Part shown: positions 21,380 through 28,141 of the stretch, piece after piece
Position numbering within the stretch: position 1 is the first letter of the stretch
Layout of the letters: every line of letters begins with the position of its first letter
DNA from: a virus
DNA: 33,885 nt
Direction: 5' to 3' (one strand)
Virus record (IMG/VR): IMGVR_UViG_3300046516_000864
Span: 1 to 33,885 of that record
Translations under genes and position numbers: made by a program
Notes under the pieces: model-generated
Told to the model about the DNA's origin: nothing
Seen by the model: the letters and a program-made list of their open reading frames with translations, nothing else
Database searches by the model: none

Positions 21380-23473
21380 GTGCCGCGGGTACAGGGGTTC
21401 GGCGCCGTCGACCTGCTCGGATGGACGCCCGACGCGCTCGACCTCGTCGAGCACCTCCGCGGCTGGACCGAACCCGCGATCGAGCGGCTCGAGCTCGGCT
21501 GGCTCCCCGACCAGCGCCGCGTCCTGATCCCGATCCGCGACGACGCCGGCGTCGAGCTCGGCGAGCTCCGCTACGACCCGACCGGCGAGCGCCAACCGAA
21601 GATGCTCGCCTCGAGCGGCTCGCCGCGGGCGCTGTTCCCGCCGCCGGAGCTCCTCGCCGACGACGAGCTCGGCAAGCACCGCACCGTCTGGCTCGTCGAG
21701 GGCGAACCCGACGCGATCCGGCTCTGGTCGCTCGGCCTCCCCGCCGTCGCCACCCCCGGCGCCGGCAACTGGCGCGACGAATGGGCCGCCCGCTTCACCG
21801 GCCGCCACTGGACCGTGATCGTCTGCTTCGACTGCGACCAGGCCGGCCGCACCGGCGCCACCCGGGCCGCCACCGCGATCGTCCGCGCCGGCGGCGACGC
21901 CCGCCTCCTCGACCTCGACCCGACCCGCGACGACGGCTACGACCTCACCGACTTCGCCCACAACGCCGACACCCCCGAGCTCCGGGCCGGGGCAGCCACC
22001 CTGCTCACCGCGATCGCCGACAGCATCGACCTCCACCAGCCCGAACCCAGCGAGGGCGAACCCGGCGAACCCAGCGTCCGCCCCTGGCGCTCGATCCCCT
22101 GGTCGACGTTCCGCGACCAGGCACCCGAGGAGCACCGCTGGCTGATCGACGGGCTCCTCCCCGCCGGCGTGCTCTGCTTCATCGCCGGCCCACCCAAACG
22201 CGGCAAGACCTGGGTCGGGATCGGCCTCGCGCTCGCGCTCGCGCTCGGCCGCCCCTTCGCCGGCGAGCACCTCGTGCCGACCGCCCGCGACGTCCTCTAC
22301 ATCGCCCTCGAGGGATCCCAGACCGGCCTGCGAACCAGGATCGGCGCGCTCGCCCGCGGCCACCAGGCCGACCCCGACAGCACCGAGCTCGAGCGGCTCC
22401 ACATGCTCTACCGGCCCCGCCCGTTCGACCTCGCCGAGCTCACCACCAGCGACTGGCTTCTGCAGGAAGCGACCGACGTCGACGCCCGCCTCGTCTTCGT
22501 CGACGTGCTCCGCGCCGCCGCCCGCTTCCAGGAGAACGTCGCCGAAGACTTCGCCCGCATCCGCGACCACCTCGACCCGCTCCTCCACGCCGAACGCACC
22601 GTCGTGCTCCTCCACCACTTCGGCAAGCTGAACGACACCCAGAAAGAGCGCAGCCCGGGCGAACGGATGGCCGGCACCGGAGCCATGTACGGCGCCCTCG
22701 ACGTCGGCTTCCTGATCACCCGCAGCGAGGACGGCGCCCGCCGCCTCGGCGTCGTCGTCGAGGCCCGCGACTTCGCCGCACCCGACGCGCTCCAGCTCGC
22801 GATCGCCGGCGAGGGCGGCGGCAAGCACGGCGGATTCCGCTACGCCGACACCGCCACCCTGATCATCGACGAGCCCGACGAGGTCGACTACGTCGCCTCG
22901 GCCGAGACGGAGCTCGAGGACGAGCCCGCAGGTCTCAGCCGCGACGCGCTCGCCGAGCGCATCGGAAGCTGGAAGCTGTTCGAGCCGGCGATCGCCGCCG
23001 ACACCGAACGCCGCGCCGAGCTGGGCGAGCCGCCCCGCATCGTCCGCTGGAAACCCGCCGACGACGCCGACGGCCGCTTCCCCGGCGTCGACGCGCAGGG
23101 CCGTCGGCGCCAGAAAACCTACGCCCCGTATCTCACGTTCGCCCGCTACGAGGACGCCCTGGCGGCGGCCGGGCCGACCCAGCCGAGCATCTTCGGAGAT
23201 GGCATCTTCGGAGATGGTCGGTCCGACCCCGAACTGGCCGGACCGAACATCTCGGGAGATGTTCGGTCCGACCCCGAATTAGCCGGACCGAACATCTCGG
23301 GAGATGCTCGGTCCGGCCCTGGACCGACCGGACCGAACATCTCTGAATCGGGGGACGAGCTCGGTCCGGAGATGCTCGGTCCCCCTACGGGGGGGGACCG
23401 AGTGGACCGAGCATCTCCGGACCGGCTCGATAGCGGCGGCGACCCGACCGAGCCACCAGCGGAGGAACCATGA
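21380..23473 (+). CDS. Fused primase-helicase (Toprim plus RecA-fold ATPase)
   Basis: A 697-residue replication protein. A Toprim-like part has Glu107 in VWLVEGEPDAIRL and Asp151-x-Asp153 in VCFDCDQAG, as in primases. An ATPase part has Walker A GPPKRGKT (270-277), Walker B LVFVD (371-375) and a sensor-like HHFGK (412-416), resembling RepA/DnaB-type phage helicases. Residues 607-675 are a 15-residue repeat rich in Gly, Pro and Asp (GPNISGDVRSDPELA), encoded by 45-bp palindromic repeats. GTG at 21380 is the first start after the previous stop; the ribosome site is weak. The end overlaps rusA by ATGA. Priming and unwinding at the fork is the likely job. Confidence 0.8.
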   Translation: MPRVQGFGAVDLLGWTPDALDLVEHLRGWTEPAIERLELGWLPDQRRVLIPIRDDAGVELGELRYDPTGERQPKMLASSGSPRALFPPPELLADDELGKHRTVWLVEGEPDAIRLWSLGLPAVATPGAGNWRDEWAARFTGRHWTVIVCFDCDQAGRTGATRAATAIVRAGGDARLLDLDPTRDDGYDLTDFAHNADTPELRAGAATLLTAIADSIDLHQPEPSEGEPGEPSVRPWRSIPWSTFRDQAPEEHRWLIDGLLPAGVLCFIAGPPKRGKTWVGIGLALALALGRPFAGEHLVPTARDVLYIALEGSQTGLRTRIGALARGHQADPDSTELERLHMLYRPRPFDLAELTTSDWLLQEATDVDARLVFVDVLRAAARFQENVAEDFARIRDHLDPLLHAERTVVLLHHFGKLNDTQKERSPGERMAGTGAMYGALDVGFLITRSEDGARRLGVVVEARDFAAPDALQLAIAGEGGGKHGGFRYADTATLIIDEPDEVDYVASAETELEDEPAGLSRDALAERIGSWKLFEPAIAADTERRAELGEPPRIVRWKPADDADGRFPGVDAQGRRRQKTYAPYLTFARYEDALAAAGPTQPSIFGDGIFGDGRSDPELAGPNISGDVRSDPELAGPNISGDARSGPGPTGPNISESGDELGPEMLGPPTGGDRVDRASPDRLDSGGDPTEPPAEEP
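23186..23424 (+). repeat. 45-bp palindromic repeat array in replication gene
   Basis: Half-sites of the form GGAGATGnTCGGTCC occur at 23210, 23255 and 23300 (exactly 45 bp apart) and at 23368. The reverse half-site GGACCGAnCATCTC occurs at 23240, 23285, 23330 and 23404. At 23240-23269 two face each other as a perfect 14-bp inverted repeat around GG. A 21-bp perfect inverted repeat joins 23362-23382 with 23404-23424, and an 11-bp hairpin lies at 23375-23402. The array is in frame and translated. Iterons inside a replication gene recall lambda ori; origin use is inference. Confidence 0.8.
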
Positions 23474-23985
23474 CCGGCGAGCCGCTCTCCCGGGTCGAGT
23501 TCACCGTGCTCGGCCTGCCGCAACCGCAGGGCTCGAAGACGGTCATCCAGCAGAAGGGCCGCCGGCCTCGGATGATCGAGGACAACCCACAGACCGGGCC
23601 GTGGCGCTCGACCGTCGTCGCGGCCGCGCACGCCGCGATGACCCATCACGGCGACGAGGGGACGAGCGGCTACCTGCCGCCGCTCGAGGGGCCGCTCCGG
23701 CTCCGGGCCGTGTTCGTGTTCCCGCGCCCGGCCGGTCACTACGGGTCGGGCCGGAACGCCGGCCGGCTGAAGCCGAGCTCGCCGCTCTACGTACGCACGC
23801 GCCCCGACGTCGACAAGCTCCTGCGGGCGGTCGGCGACGCGCTCACCGGGGTCGTGTTCCGCGACGACGCGCAGCTCGTGATCGTGCAGGCGGAGAAGCA
23901 CTACGGGGCGCCGCCGTGCGCGCTGGTGGTGGTCGAGGAGCTCGCGCTCGAGGACGACCGGCCGGGCCCGGAGGCCGAGCCGTGA
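23470..23985 (+). CDS. rusA: RusA-like Holliday junction resolvase
   Basis: A 171-residue nuclease. The RusA signature is present: TRPDVDKLLRAVGDALTGVV (Asp113, Asp115, Lys116, Asp123) and FRDDAQLV (Asp132, Asp133), with an N-terminal strand segment (VEFTVLGLPQPQGSKTV) typical of the family. Catalytic aspartates bind metal and cut four-way junctions. It overlaps the primase-helicase by ATGA. The C-terminal 20 residues are acidic and probably disordered. The next gene starts 126 bp later, leaving a regulatory gap. Confidence 0.9.
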   Translation: MTGEPLSRVEFTVLGLPQPQGSKTVIQQKGRRPRMIEDNPQTGPWRSTVVAAAHAAMTHHGDEGTSGYLPPLEGPLRLRAVFVFPRPAGHYGSGRNAGRLKPSSPLYVRTRPDVDKLLRAVGDALTGVVFRDDAQLVIVQAEKHYGAPPCALVVVEELALEDDRPGPEAEP

Positions 23986-23997
23986 GGGCCGCTCCGG

Positions 23998-24027
23998 TTG
24001 ACGTCTGGCCGCCGGTGCGCCTAGACT
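23998..24027 (+). promoter_or_regulatory. Sigma70-type promoter candidate
   Basis: TTGACG at 23998-24003 and TAGACT at 24022-24027 are 18 bp apart, close to the vegetative consensus and the best match I saw in the window. It lies right after rusA, in the only gap between the replication genes and the HNH/packaging operon, so it may start late transcription. A start near 24034 would put a structured leader in the transcript. Confidence 0.55.
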
Positions 24028-24045
24028 CCGGGCGAGGGAAGCCCC

Positions 24046-24111
24046 GGCCGGGAACCTCTGCAGCGCGCCTCCCTGCGCTGGCTCACGCACCCGGCCGATG
24101 GAAGGTTCCCG
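24046..24111 (+). ncRNA. Bistable leader with mutually exclusive stems (putative cis-regulatory RNA)
   Basis: Two perfect stems compete for the same bases. Stem A pairs CGGGAACCT (24049-24057) with AGGTTCCCG (24103-24111). Stem B pairs GGCCGGG (24046-24052) with CCCGGCC (24090-24096). Inside, CAGCGC (24061-24066) pairs with GCGCTG (24075-24080). The ribosome site GGAAGG (24100-24105) of the 24112 ATG is partly inside stem A but free in stem B. This arrangement would let the fold decide translation. No known riboswitch family was recognised; switching is inference. Confidence 0.4.
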
Positions 24112-24207
24112 ATGGCAGCCGCGCCGAAGCAGCCCGCGAAGCACGTGACCGACCGGCCGCGGTGCTGCCTCACGAGGCGAGTTTTTAATTCGGGCGGGCC
24201 GCCGTGA
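24112..24207 (+). CDS. 31-residue peptide upstream of HNH endonuclease
   Basis: ATG at 24112 follows GGAAGG with a six-base gap and opens a 31-residue frame (MAAAPKQPAKHV..., later RPRCCLTRRVF) whose TGA overlaps the GTG of the HNH gene (GTGA). It is basic, has adjacent cysteines and no recognised family. It may be a regulatory leader peptide passing ribosomes to the HNH gene, or a short structural gene. The good ribosome site and the coupling support translation. An attenuator-like hairpin and T-run lie inside it. Confidence 0.4.
   Translation: MAAAPKQPAKHVTDRPRCCLTRRVFNSGGPP
24167..24187 (+). terminator. Weak hairpin plus T-run (attenuator candidate)
   Basis: GCCT-CACG-AGGC forms a four-base-pair hairpin, with one further wobble pair, followed two bases later by five T residues. 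T-runs are very rare in this GC-rich sequence. The stem is short for an intrinsic terminator and it lies inside a small frame, so attenuation linked to translation of the leader peptide is a possibility rather than a clear call. Confidence 0.3.
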
Positions 24208-24779
24208 CCCCCGCAACTTCGGTCCCCCCCCTGATCGAGAAGCGACCGCGCCTGTTCGGGCCGATCGAGCTGCGGTGCGGCCGATGCCGCCGGATCGACG
24301 ACGAATCCGCGTTCTCGCGTGATGCAACACGCCCCAGCGGCCGCTGCCGGATCTGCAAGCTCTGCGAGGCCGAGCGCGAGCGGCCGGCGCGCACGGTCGA
24401 CGTCCGGCTCTGCGCGACCGGGTGCGGCCGGCCGGCGATCACGACCCGGCACCGCTACTGCGGGCAGTGCCGGCAGGAGGCCTACGCCCGGCAGAGCAAG
24501 CTGGCGCTGCTCCGGGAGCGGGATCGCCGGCGGCCGTCGACGACGGAGCGCGGCTACGGCGCGTCGCACGTGGCGACGCGCCGGCGGCTGGCGCCGATCG
24601 TGGCGACCGGCGAGGTCTGCTGCGCGCGCTGCGGTCAGCGGATCCTCGCCGGCGAGCCGTGGGATCTCGGGCACGTTGACGGCGACCGCACGCGCTACGC
24701 CGGGCCGGAGCATCGCCGGTGCAACCGGGCGACCGCGCTTCACGTGGCGCGGGCGCGGCGCACCTCGAGGTCGTGGTGA
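24204..24779 (+). CDS. HNH endonuclease
   Basis: A 191-residue protein with a C-terminal HNH domain: CCARCGQ (Cys140, Cys143), WDLGHVDGDRT with Asp154 and His157, and PEHRRCNRATA with His170, Cys173 and Asn174. Two N-terminal Cys-x2-Cys clusters (RCGRCRR and ICKLCEA) and a third (CATGCG, CGQC) suggest further zinc sites. HNH enzymes beside terminase genes help cut packaged DNA in HK97-type phages. Here the gene is separated from the small terminase only by the methyltransferase. GTG start in a GTGA overlap. Confidence 0.85.
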   Translation: MTPATSVPPLIEKRPRLFGPIELRCGRCRRIDDESAFSRDATRPSGRCRICKLCEAERERPARTVDVRLCATGCGRPAITTRHRYCGQCRQEAYARQSKLALLRERDRRRPSTTERGYGASHVATRRRLAPIVATGEVCCARCGQRILAGEPWDLGHVDGDRTRYAGPEHRRCNRATALHVARARRTSRSW

Positions 24780-26080
24780 TCGCCGACACGCTCGCCGAGC
24801 TCGTGGTGCCGATCGACTCGGTTAGGGCCTACGGGCGGAACCCGCGGCGCGGCGACGTCGCGGCGATCAGGCGGTCGCTCGAGGTCAACGGGCAGTACCG
24901 GCCGATCGTGGTGAACCGGCGGACGGGCGAGGTGCTCGCGGGGAACCACACGTGGGCGGCGGCGCGGGAGCTCGAGTGGACGGCGATCGCGGCGACGTTC
25001 GTCGACGTCGACGAGCAGGAGGCGGCGCGGATCGTGCTCGCCGACAACAAGACCGCGGAGCTGGGCGGCTACGACGACGCCGAGCTGGCGGCGCTGCTGC
25101 GGTCGCTACCCGACGGGCTCGACGGGACGGCGTGGCAGGATCGCGAGCTCGAGCGGCTGCTCGCTCGGATCGAGCGCGACGGCGTCGACGCCGGCCGCGA
25201 CACCGAGCCGGGCCCGCGGCCGGCGCGGCCGAGGTCGAAGCCGGGCACGCTCTACGCGCTCGGCGCGCACCGGCTGCTCTGCGGCGACGCGACCGACCCG
25301 GTCGCGGCGCTACGGCTCCTCGACGGCGACCAGGCCGAGATGGTCTGGACCGACCCGCCCTACGGCGTCGCCTACCAGGTCTCGCTGACCGACCCCGCCT
25401 ACGCTCGGCGGCGGCGGCAGGACGGCAAGGTCGTGCCCGGCGACGCGCTCGCCGAGGCCGACCACGCGGCGATGCTCGACGCGGCGCTCCGCGCGACGCT
25501 CGAGGTCTGCGCGCCGGGCGCACCGTGGTACGTCACCGCGCCGGCCGGGCCGCGCGAGTTCACGTTCGCGAGCGTGCTGAACGGGCTCGGCGTGCTCCGC
25601 GAGACGCTCGTCTGGGTGAAGGACGCGTTCGTGTTCGGCCGGCAGGACTATCACTGGCAGCACGAGCCGATCCTGTACGGGTGGAAGCCGGGCGCGGCGC
25701 ACTACTGGAACGCAGGCCGGGCCGAGGCGACCGTGCTCGACGGCGAGCTCGAGCTCGGCGACCTCGATAAGCGGCAGCTCGTCGCGCTCGTCCGGCAGCT
25801 CCAGAACGAGCGGCAGACAACGGTCATCCGCGAGGACCGGCCGCGCCGCTCCGACCTTCACCCGACGATGAAGCCGGTCGGGCTCGTCGCCAGGTGCGTG
25901 CTCAACTCGAGCCGGCAGGCCGGGGTCGTCTTCGACCCGTTCGCCGGCAGCGGCACGACGCTGATCGCGTGCGAGAACCTCGGCCGCCGCGGCCGCGCGC
26001 TCGAGCTCGACCCCGGCTACTGCGACGTGATCGTCGACCGCTGGCAGCGGCACACCGGCGAGCAGGCGACCCGGCTATGA
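24776..26080 (+). CDS. ParB-domain DNA methyltransferase
   Basis: A 434-residue fusion. Residues 1-100 are a ParB-like nuclease/partition domain (VPIDSVRAYGRNPRRGD, LEVNGQYRPIVVNRRTGEV, LAGNHTWAAARELEW, VLADNKTAELGGYDD). Residues 150-425 are a DNA methyltransferase with the catalytic TDPPYGVAY (DPPY at 193-196) and the AdoMet-binding DPFAGSGTT (387-395). The motif order, DPPY before the FxGxG motif, indicates an N4-cytosine or N6-adenine enzyme. This architecture is common in actinophages. It may protect phage DNA from host restriction. GTG at 24776 is chosen for the GTGA overlap. Confidence 0.85.
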   Translation: MIADTLAELVVPIDSVRAYGRNPRRGDVAAIRRSLEVNGQYRPIVVNRRTGEVLAGNHTWAAARELEWTAIAATFVDVDEQEAARIVLADNKTAELGGYDDAELAALLRSLPDGLDGTAWQDRELERLLARIERDGVDAGRDTEPGPRPARPRSKPGTLYALGAHRLLCGDATDPVAALRLLDGDQAEMVWTDPPYGVAYQVSLTDPAYARRRRQDGKVVPGDALAEADHAAMLDAALRATLEVCAPGAPWYVTAPAGPREFTFASVLNGLGVLRETLVWVKDAFVFGRQDYHWQHEPILYGWKPGAAHYWNAGRAEATVLDGELELGDLDKRQLVALVRQLQNERQTTVIREDRPRRSDLHPTMKPVGLVARCVLNSSRQAGVVFDPFAGSGTTLIACENLGRRGRALELDPGYCDVIVDRWQRHTGEQATRL

Positions 26081-26520
26081 GGTGCTCGGCGACGACGAGG
26101 GCCGGCGCGCGGTGCCGCAGCTACGCGATCGCCGGCACCGACCGCTGTCGGGCGCACCGGCCGCCCGTGCCGGCGGCCGAGCTCGTCGCGCAGCTCGTCT
26201 CGATGCTCCGCGCCGGGAACTACCTCGAGGTCGCCGCGGTCGCGGCCGGCGTCTCGGTCGCCGAGCTGCTCGAGCACCCGGCGCTCCGCGACGAGATCGA
26301 GGCCGCCCGCGCTGAGGGCGAGGTCAGGGCGATCGCGAGGATCGCGGCCGCGGCGACCGAGAGCTGGCAGGCGGCGGCATGGCTGCTCGAGCGGCAGTAC
26401 CCGGATCGGTGGGGGAGGCCGGCGACCAGGCCGGAGGAGCGGCCGCCGGCGCCGCTGGTGGCGCCCGACGCGCTCGACGAGCTCGCGAGTCGGCGCGACG
26501 AGCGTAGGGCCGGCCGGTGA
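26077..26520 (+). CDS. terS: Terminase small subunit (putative)
   Basis: A 147-residue protein starting in an ATGA overlap, two genes before the large terminase. The N-terminus has Cys3, Cys13, Cys24 and His27 (MRCSATTRAGARC, TDRCRAH). A helical HTH-like middle follows (NYLEVAAVAAGVSVAELLEHP), then a segment typical of small terminases (ATESWQAAAWLLERQYPDRWG) and a basic end. Small subunits bind the packaging site and deliver DNA to the large subunit. The C-x9-C ... C-x2-H addition is a likely zinc site. Assignment by pattern and position. Confidence 0.65.
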   Translation: MRCSATTRAGARCRSYAIAGTDRCRAHRPPVPAAELVAQLVSMLRAGNYLEVAAVAAGVSVAELLEHPALRDEIEAARAEGEVRAIARIAAAATESWQAAAWLLERQYPDRWGRPATRPEERPPAPLVAPDALDELASRRDERRAGR

Positions 26521-26702
26521 GCGTCGTCGATCGTGCCGAGAAGCCGTCGGTCGAGCAGCTCTGCGGCCGGTGCCGCATCTCTCACGTGGGCAGCGCGTTC
26601 GCCGTCGTCTCGCCGCGAGGGGTCGCGCATTACGCGTTCGATGACGGGACGACGCTCTGCGGCAAGGATGCGACCGGCCCGAAGTGGTGGCGGCCGAGGT
26701 GA
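26517..26702 (+). CDS. Small Cys/His protein
   Basis: A 61-residue protein between the two terminase genes, with GTGA overlaps on both sides. Cys16-x2-Cys19, His23, His38 and Cys48 (QLCGRCR, VAHYAFDDGTTLCG) suggest one zinc site. This H-x-A ... T-L-C-G pattern is common in short actinophage proteins. It may act in packaging because of its position, but nothing in the sequence proves it. Confidence 0.6.
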   Translation: MSVVDRAEKPSVEQLCGRCRISHVGSAFAVVSPRGVAHYAFDDGTTLCGKDATGPKWWRPR

Positions 26703-28141
26703 GCGTCCTCGACGCGACCATGCCGCGGATCATGTATGCGCCCGACTACGGCTCGAGCGCCGGCGCCGAGGCGATCGAGTTGGCCGCGATGGCCGGGCTC
26801 GTGCTCGACCCGTGGGAGCAGCTCGTGCTTGAGACGGCGCTGGGCGAGGGCGACGATGGCCGCTGGGCGGCCGCCGAGGTCGGGCTCTGCGTGCCGCGGC
26901 AGAACGGCAAGAACGCGGTGCTCGAGGCACGCGAGCTCGCGGCGCTCTTCCTCCTCCGCGAGCGCCTGGTGATCCACTCGGCGCAGCAGTTCAAGACGGC
27001 GAAGGAGCATTTCCAGCGGCTGCTCGCGCGGATCGAGTCGACGCCCGATTTCGACCGGCGGGTGCGGAAGGTGATCCGTACGCACGGCGAGGAGGGGATC
27101 GAGCTGCGCAACGGGCAGCGGGTCCTCTTCTTCGCGCGGACGAAGGCCGCGGGCCGGGGCTTCTCGGAGGCCGAGCTGATCGTGCTCGACGAGGCGATGT
27201 TCCTCGCCGAGACGTCGATGGGCGCCCTGGTCTTCACGCAGGCGGCGGCGCAGAACCGGCAGCGCTGGTACACCGGCTCGGCCGTCGACGAGCTCGTCCA
27301 CCCCGACGGGGTCGTGTTCGCGCGGGTGCGCGAGCGGGCGCTCGCCGGCAACGACCCGCGGCTCGCCTACTTCGAGTGGTCGGCCGACTGCGACCGGCCC
27401 GAGCTGCTCGAGCCCGACCTCCTCGGCGACGAGGACACCTGGGCGGCGGCGAACCCGGCCCTGGACATTCGGATCAGCCGGGAGGCGGTCCGCGACGAGC
27501 TCCGCTCGCTCGACCGCAGGACGTTCGCGGTCGAGCGGCTCGGCGTCGGTGCGTGGCCGGCGACCGACGCCGGCCGCGAGGAGGTGATCCCGGCGGAGAA
27601 GTGGCTCGCGCTGACCGACGAGGAGGGCGAGATCACCGGCTCGGTCGTGTTCGCGTTCGACGTCTCCCCCGACCGCGGCAGCGCCGCGATCGCGGTCGCC
27701 GGCCGCCGACCGGACGGGCACCTCCAGGTCGAGGTCTCCGAGCACCGCCGCGGCGCCGCCTGGGTCGTCCCCGAGCTCGTCCAGAAGCGGGCCCGCTGGG
27801 ACCCGATCGCGGTGATGGCCGACGCCGCCGGCCCGGCCGGCTCGCTCGTCTTCCGCTGCGAGGAGGCCGGCTTCTCCGTCGACGTCGTGACCGCCGCCGA
27901 CCACGCGAGGGCGTGCGGGCTGCTCGTCGACCTCGTCGACCAGGCCGAGCTCCGACACCTCGGCAGCGGCGAGCTCGCGAGCGCGCTGCGGGGCGCGACC
28001 CAGCGGCCGCTCGGCGACGCCTGGGCCTGGTCGCGGAAGAACTCGACCGTCGACATCACCCCGCTCGTCGCGGCGACGCTCGCGCTCTGGGGCGCGGCGA
28101 CGCTCGGCTGGGATCCGACCGAGAGCCCGGTGATCTTCTGA
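26699..28141 (+). CDS. terL: Terminase large subunit
   Basis: A 480-residue packaging motor and nuclease. The ATPase part has an atypical Walker A VPRQNGKN (65-72), as in the HK97/Terminase_1 group, and Walker B LIVLDEA (160-166) with the catalytic Glu. The nuclease part starts around Asp321 (VFAFDVSPDRG), the first RNase H-type acidic residue. GTG at 26699 is preferred for the GTGA overlap over a GTG at 26684. It overlaps the portal start by CTGA. Identification is secure. Confidence 0.9.
   Translation: MSVLDATMPRIMYAPDYGSSAGAEAIELAAMAGLVLDPWEQLVLETALGEGDDGRWAAAEVGLCVPRQNGKNAVLEARELAALFLLRERLVIHSAQQFKTAKEHFQRLLARIESTPDFDRRVRKVIRTHGEEGIELRNGQRVLFFARTKAAGRGFSEAELIVLDEAMFLAETSMGALVFTQAAAQNRQRWYTGSAVDELVHPDGVVFARVRERALAGNDPRLAYFEWSADCDRPELLEPDLLGDEDTWAAANPALDIRISREAVRDELRSLDRRTFAVERLGVGAWPATDAGREEVIPAEKWLALTDEEGEITGSVVFAFDVSPDRGSAAIAVAGRRPDGHLQVEVSEHRRGAAWVVPELVQKRARWDPIAVMADAAGPAGSLVFRCEEAGFSVDVVTAADHARACGLLVDLVDQAELRHLGSGELASALRGATQRPLGDAWAWSRKNSTVDITPLVAATLALWGAATLGWDPTESPVIF

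What the first reader, a model, noticed from the sequence alone, without database searches (positions are those of the whole stretch)
23998..24207. Promoter-driven bistable leader controlling a 31-residue peptide and the HNH gene
A near-consensus promoter is followed by two perfect but mutually exclusive stems (9 bp and 7 bp sharing 24049-24052). Only one of them covers the ribosome site of the 24112 ATG, whose frame is coupled to HNH. This is the geometry of a translational RNA switch at the border between replication and packaging genes. It could time the shift to late functions by sensing a ligand, a protein or phage RNA. An alternative is that the inverted repeats are the cos/packaging site recognised by HNH and terminase.
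Basis: partly seen in the sequence, partly recalled or inferred. Interest (0 to 1): 0.7.

Follow-up and report, generated by a model that had tools for sequence, protein, structure and literature searches.

The report
Phage cos site splits packaging-nuclease gene
The supposed RNA switch is really next to the place where this virus's DNA is cut for packaging, and the cut appears to separate the start codon from the rest of the gene for a nuclease that probably helps make that cut.

Summary
The described features exist, but the RNA-switch reading fails. The 9-bp repeat is near chance level (P about 0.06), the leader does not fold unusually (z -0.16), and neither stem survives in three homologous leaders, with no compensatory pattern. 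The promoter is supported: its -10 element and the following start codon recur after RusA in relatives.

The interval runs into a cos site at its 3' edge: T-tract (24182-24186), GTGAC (24204-24208), CCCCGCA (24209-24215), C8 (24224-24231). Thirteen relatives' contigs start exactly at GTC. One (L070) is identical over 1200 nt to a virus in which the same GTC follows GTGACCCCCGCA (L069). Two long contigs carry matching motifs at both ends. Isolates OneDirection, Charlie, Eyre and Butters have similar termini. This virus's own ends were not mapped.

Unexpectedly, the only usable HNH start codon (GTG 24204) lies on the cos. In 10 of 15 comparable loci the HNH frame is open across the cut, with the same 58-codon length in seven. 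Linear virion DNA would carry a headless HNH gene, restored by end-joining. I found no report of this in the library searched.

The parts
23470..23985 (+). RusA-like Holliday junction resolvase, last gene of the right arm before the leader
   Evidence: Pfam RusA E 4.6e-12, phrog_140 E 2.7e-27; 73-79% identical to seven viral relatives
23998..24027 (+). sigma-70-type promoter TTGACG-N18-TAGACT, probable late promoter reading through the joined cos
   Evidence: only hit in the region; TA-ACTC invariant in four aligned leaders downstream of RusA, similar elements in L174, L175, L177
   Evidence: P about 0.063 in shuffles; not kept in relatives
   Evidence: 5/8, 5/8, 3/8 pairs kept in relatives
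24100..24207 (+). ribosome site GGAAGG (24100-24105) and 31-codon ORF 24112-24207; start position conserved, peptide diverged, 3' part is cos DNA
24182..24186 (+). T-tract, conserved element of the right genome end, possible TerS-recognition feature (inferred)
   Evidence: present in the aligned cos sites and at the right ends of contigs G005 and G006
24204..24208 (+). GTGAC: inferred last double-stranded bases of the right genome end; GTG is the HNH start codon
   Evidence: right ends of G005 (GTGAC) and G006 (ATGAC) stop here; HNH frame
24209..24215 (+). CCCCGCA: inferred 3' cohesive overhang (7 nt by comparison)
   Evidence: present in joined loci, absent from both contig ends
24216..24231 (+). 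inferred left genome end: ACTTCGGT then C8 (GTC-N6-C8 in relatives)
   Evidence: 13 contigs start exactly at GTC; L070 against L069; isolates' left ends
24204..24779 (+). HNH endonuclease gene spanning the cos, with a cysteine-rich N-terminal insert before the HNH domain
   Evidence: phrog_1808 E 1.9e-13; no other ATG/GTG/TTG in frame before codon 122
24719..26080 (+). ParB-like/DNA methyltransferase fusion
25894..26520 (+). terminase small subunit
   Evidence: phrog_4102 E 1.2e-18
26684..28141 (+). terminase large subunit
   Evidence: phrog_9 E 1.8e-72

Best explanation
The region is the joined right and left ends of a cos-type phage genome, not an RNA switch. A conserved promoter near the extreme right end reads through the joined cos into HNH, ParB/methyltransferase, terminase and capsid genes. 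The cos runs from the T-tract (24182-24186) to the C-run (24224-24231). By homology the ends lie after GTGAC (24208) and after CCCCGCA (24215), leaving a short 3' overhang. The HNH gene, whose product probably assists terminase in the cut (as HK97 gp74 does), starts at the GTG inside the cos. Packaging therefore separates its promoter and start codon from its body, and end-joining after infection restores them. Shown: contig ends in relatives, the joined sequence, the open reading frame across it. Inferred: the exact cut in this virus, overhang length and polarity, HNH function, and that the split affects expression.
For: 13 of the HNH-relative contigs start exactly at GTC-N-C/T run. L070 starts at GTC and is 100% identical over 1200 nt to L069, where the sequence continues upstream as GTGACCCCCGCA. 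G005 (34,692 bp) and G006 (32,046 bp) start at GTC and end at T-tract..GTGAC/ATGAC. Isolates OneDirection, Charlie, Eyre and Butters have left ends GTC + C/T run and right ends with GAC + overhang. The window has one match to the core with no mismatch at 24204-24230, 0.09 expected. Synteny: RusA - cos - HNH - terS - terL. HNH frame open across the cos in 10 of 15 loci, 58 codons to WDLGH in seven. -10 element conserved in leaders. HK97 gp74 promotes cos cleavage (PMC9410871).
Against: No end of this virus itself was observed. GTC is ACT in the window (also altered in L008, L072, L174). The 7-nt overhang combines left ends and right ends from different viruses; isolates of the wider group imply longer overhangs (11-13 nt). 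In 5 of 15 loci the HNH gene starts after the cut, so the split is not universal. A non-standard start (CTG/ATC) left of the C-run cannot be excluded. The loci are related, so counts are not independent.
Confidence: 0.8

Rival explanations
1. Bistable translational RNA switch: two exclusive stems in the leader hide or expose the ribosome site of ATG 24112 and so time HNH expression.
For: Both stems are perfect, overlap at 24049-24052 and have near-equal forced energies; stem 1 covers part of the ribosome site.
Against: Repeat length near chance (P 0.063); no folding excess (z -0.16); stems not kept in three homologous leaders; no Rfam match; the downstream end of the interval is explained by the cos.
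Confidence: 0.04
2. The HNH gene starts after the cut (non-standard start, or a minimal HNH domain), the in-frame reading across the cos is incidental, and the site is an ordinary cos upstream of an ordinary gene.
For: Five loci with the same core start HNH downstream of the cut; some spanning loci have an ATG/GTG just before RGYG (for example L016 codon 19).
Against: The window, L006 and L106 have no ATG/GTG/TTG between the cos and the HNH domain. Constant 58-codon length and shared basic linker in seven loci. Frame agreement 10/15 has P 0.0085 for frame alone.
Confidence: 0.2
3. The hairpin at 24166-24179 with its T-run is an intrinsic terminator ending the right-arm operon.
For: The pattern scan reports it.
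Against: The T-tract is conserved at this distance from the cos in relatives with different upstream sequence and sits at the physical right ends of two contigs.
Confidence: 0.05

Closest known systems
HK97 cos with HNH protein gp74 and terminase gp1/gp2
   Same: HNH protein linked to cos and terminase; 3' cohesive ends; gp74 stimulates cos cleavage (PMC9410871); an A-tract near the cut is read by TerS (PMC11331095).
   Different: In HK97 the TerS site lies 15-29 bp downstream of the cut, while the T-tract here lies upstream of it. The HNH gene here appears to span the cos; I know of no such layout in HK97 (own knowledge).
Actinophages OneDirection, Charlie, Eyre and Butters
   Same: Related HNH gene next to the cos; left end GTC + C/T run; right end with GAC + overhang.
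   Different: HNH is complete at the right end, before the cos; longer implied overhangs; the CCCCGCA core is not present.
Arthrobacter phage ArV2 (directly sequenced cos)
   Same: RusA and HNH genes in the right arm; 9-nt 3' overhang CCTCCGGCA (PMC4205034).
   Different: Left end lacks GTC + C-run; HNH complete before the cos.

Membership tests
cos-type (cohesive-end) packaging site | Unique physical genome ends at a fixed sequence | tested here: met
   In relatives: 13 contig starts at GTC, two contigs with both ends, and one cut/joined pair. Not observed for this virus.
cos-type (cohesive-end) packaging site | Short complementary single-stranded overhangs | tested here: inconclusive
   CCCCGCA present in joined forms and missing from contig ends, as expected of a trimmed 3' overhang; polarity and length not measured.
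cos-type (cohesive-end) packaging site | Cos close to terminase genes | tested here: met
   terS at 25894 and terL at 26684, downstream of HNH and the methyltransferase
HK97 gp74-like packaging HNH proteins | HNH domain gene beside cos and terminase | tested here: met
   phrog_1808 HNH, position
HK97 gp74-like packaging HNH proteins | Stimulates terminase cleavage at cos | not testable with these tools
   needs biochemistry
Translational RNA switch / riboswitch | Conserved or covarying alternative helices | tested here: not met
   pairs not kept and no compensatory pattern in three leaders
Translational RNA switch / riboswitch | Match to a described RNA family | tested here: not met
   no Rfam match at gathering thresholds

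The most novel reading that the evidence does not exclude
Packaging cuts the phage's own packaging-nuclease gene between start codon and body, making the gene an end-joining-dependent switch: HNH cannot be made from incoming linear DNA, becomes expressible once ends are joined (circle or concatemer), and each packaging cut disables the template that made it. Selection keeps the start codon inside the cos.
Probability: 0.35. Interest if true: 0.65.

Novelty: new variant of a known kind. Interest (0 to 1): 0.5.

Why it matters
It places the genome ends of a group of uncultivated, probably actinobacterial phages from contig ends alone and gives a motif for finding more (T-tract, [AG]TGAC-CCCCGCA-GTC, C/T run). 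If the split HNH gene is real and selected, it is a simple case of packaging acting on its own gene: an ORF broken by cutting and rebuilt by end-joining. It also warns that gene callers will see this gene as truncated at contig ends or assign it a wrong start.

Tried and rejected
RNA switch: rejected on chance, folding and lack of conservation. Terminator: rejected because the T-tract is a conserved genome-end element. tblastn of terS in phage isolates found nothing. DNA search of the leader against phages gave only short weak matches. A second cos elsewhere in the window was looked for; the full motif has one match. ArV2, a phage with a directly sequenced cos, has a different end motif. Literature searches for genes spanning cos found no description, but only open-licence papers are held and Kala et al. 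2014 was not available. The first family alignment (A2) had two rows in the wrong frame and was replaced by A3. The count of structure pairs failed on a length mismatch, so pairs were counted by script. One search failed on wrong coordinates and was not repeated.

Full report
What was claimed and what is there. The promoter, both inverted repeats, the ATG at 24112 and the overlap of its stop codon with the GTG of the HNH frame are all in the sequence; the second stem is 8 bp, not 7. The promoter is the only sigma-70-type hit in 23500-24800. The repeats are not remarkable for such GC-rich DNA: 6.3% of dinucleotide shuffles of 24033-24210 contain a perfect repeat at least as long, and the leader folds no better than shuffled sequence.

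Genes around it. RecT, then RusA (23470-23985), the gap, HNH (phrog_1808), ParB/methyltransferase, terminase small and large subunits, protease and capsid proteins. The window is a whole virus record of 33,885 bases.

Where the evidence led. A search for relatives of the HNH protein returned 80 loci, and 36 of them have HNH within about 140 nt of a contig end. Those ends share a motif: GTC, 5-9 nt, then a run of C or C/T. Thirteen contigs begin exactly at the G of GTC; a rough uniform model expects about 0.01. Internal loci show what lies before the GTC: T4-T7, then 15-25 nt, then [AG]TGACCCCCGCA. One pair is direct: L070 starts at GTC and is identical over 1200 nt to L069, where the same sequence follows ATGTGACCCCCGCA. 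Two contigs, G005 (34,692 bp) and G006 (32,046 bp), start at GTC and finish at T-tract..GTGAC and T-tract..ATGAC. The missing CCCCGCA is what a trimmed 3' overhang would leave; Merrill et al. [quoted passage not shown]

Isolated phages agree in part. Records with related HNH genes have ends of the same kind: OneDirection (..CACTGAC TCGTCGGGGTGA / GTCGATCTCTCTCCCC), Charlie (..CACTGAC CCCGCCGCAATGG / GTCAAACATCCCTCCC), Eyre (..GGCGAC CCCTGCGCTGA / GTCGCCGCCTCCC), Butters (..CACTGAC CCCGCCGCCCTCG / GTCAGGAATCTCTCTC). The spacing in these lines is mine, to show the shared GAC. Isolde, Eileen, Kumotta and ArV2 have other ends, so the motif belongs to part of the group.

The window's cos. The core occurs once without mismatch, at 24204-24230, against 0.09 expected at up to 3 mismatches. 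T-tract 24182-24186, GTGAC 24204-24208, CCCCGCA 24209-24215, C8 24224-24231. GTC is replaced by ACT; the same three bases also vary in L008 (TCC), L072 (ACG) and L174 (ATC).

The leader. Relatives with 73-79% identical RusA often carry a leader downstream of it. TA-ACTC is invariant in the four alignable leaders, and related -10 elements stand in L174, L175 and L177. They are followed by a ribosome site and a small ORF, acidic in most relatives. In L174 the cos follows soon after; in L173, L176 and L177 other sequence lies between. So the promoter and the start position at 24112 are supported by conservation, but the peptide is not conserved. Only three leaders align well enough, so this test has limited power, but it points one way.

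HNH across the cos. The GTG of GTGAC at 24204 is the only ATG/GTG/TTG in the HNH frame before codon 122, which lies inside the HNH domain. Among 15 loci with the core and an HNH gene, the frame is open across the cut in 10; in nine the start is the [AG]TG of the core, and in L040 an ATG directly before the core. Seven have exactly 58 codons from start to WDLGH, with a shared basic linker. For reading frame alone the chance is 0.0085; the loci are related, so this is a guide only. Five loci start HNH downstream; their core always has GTG, while five of the ten spanning loci (L008, L016, L061, L123, L176) have ATG. In virion DNA of the window type the gene would be split: start codon on the right end, body on the left.

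Mechanism. Most likely: infection, annealing and ligation of ends, transcription from 23998 through the joined cos, translation of the short ORF and, by the GTGA overlap, HNH; HNH with terminase then cuts concatemers at this site. HK97 gp74 promotes cos cleavage (PMC9410871), and HK97 TerS reads an A-tract near the cut (PMC11331095); the T-tract here may play a like role from the other side. Cleavage by this HNH, T-tract recognition and any regulatory value of the split gene are inference.

Distribution. In the GTDB species scan a cos-like motif before HNH appeared in a Solirubrobacter MAG (L288) and an Acidimicrobiales MAG (L284), whereas L296, L297 and L302 have a cos-like motif after HNH. 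In nearly all isolate records listed the HNH gene is at or near the right end; exceptions are prophage records and two Mycobacterium records (ridax, dwieneke) that I did not examine. That may be why the split form has not been noticed.

Verdict. Observation partly confirmed; RNA switch not supported; cos alternative supported and made precise. The part of interest is a packaging-nuclease gene whose start codon sits in the cut site. It is a variant of a known kind (cos with adjacent HNH), and the regulatory reading is unproven.

Noticed in passing
window 22894-22969 (-): ARAGORN calls a tRNA-Leu (gag) on the minus strand inside a long plus-strand ORF (21380-23473) that has no Pfam or PHROG match in its 21421-23343 part. 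It may be false or an antisense tRNA gene.
   Followed up: no
window 24204-24540: The window's HNH, like L003 and L010, has a cysteine-rich, zinc-ribbon-like insert of about 90-100 residues between the MTPA start and the HNH domain that the 58-codon relatives lack.
   Followed up: partly
L176 downstream of RusA: After the same promoter and small acidic ORF, L176 carries a collagen-like GPQGPQG repeat gene before its cos; the window lacks this stretch.
   Followed up: no
Arthrobacter phage Kumotta MK977703.1, genes 1 and 75: HNH genes are annotated at both genome ends, one on each side of the cos.
   Followed up: no
relatives L173, L174, L175, L176, L177, L209, L214: A short acidic ORF (PEP..PDP..DDD-rich) recurs shortly after RusA, in most cases right after the conserved promoter, function unknown.
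   Followed up: partly
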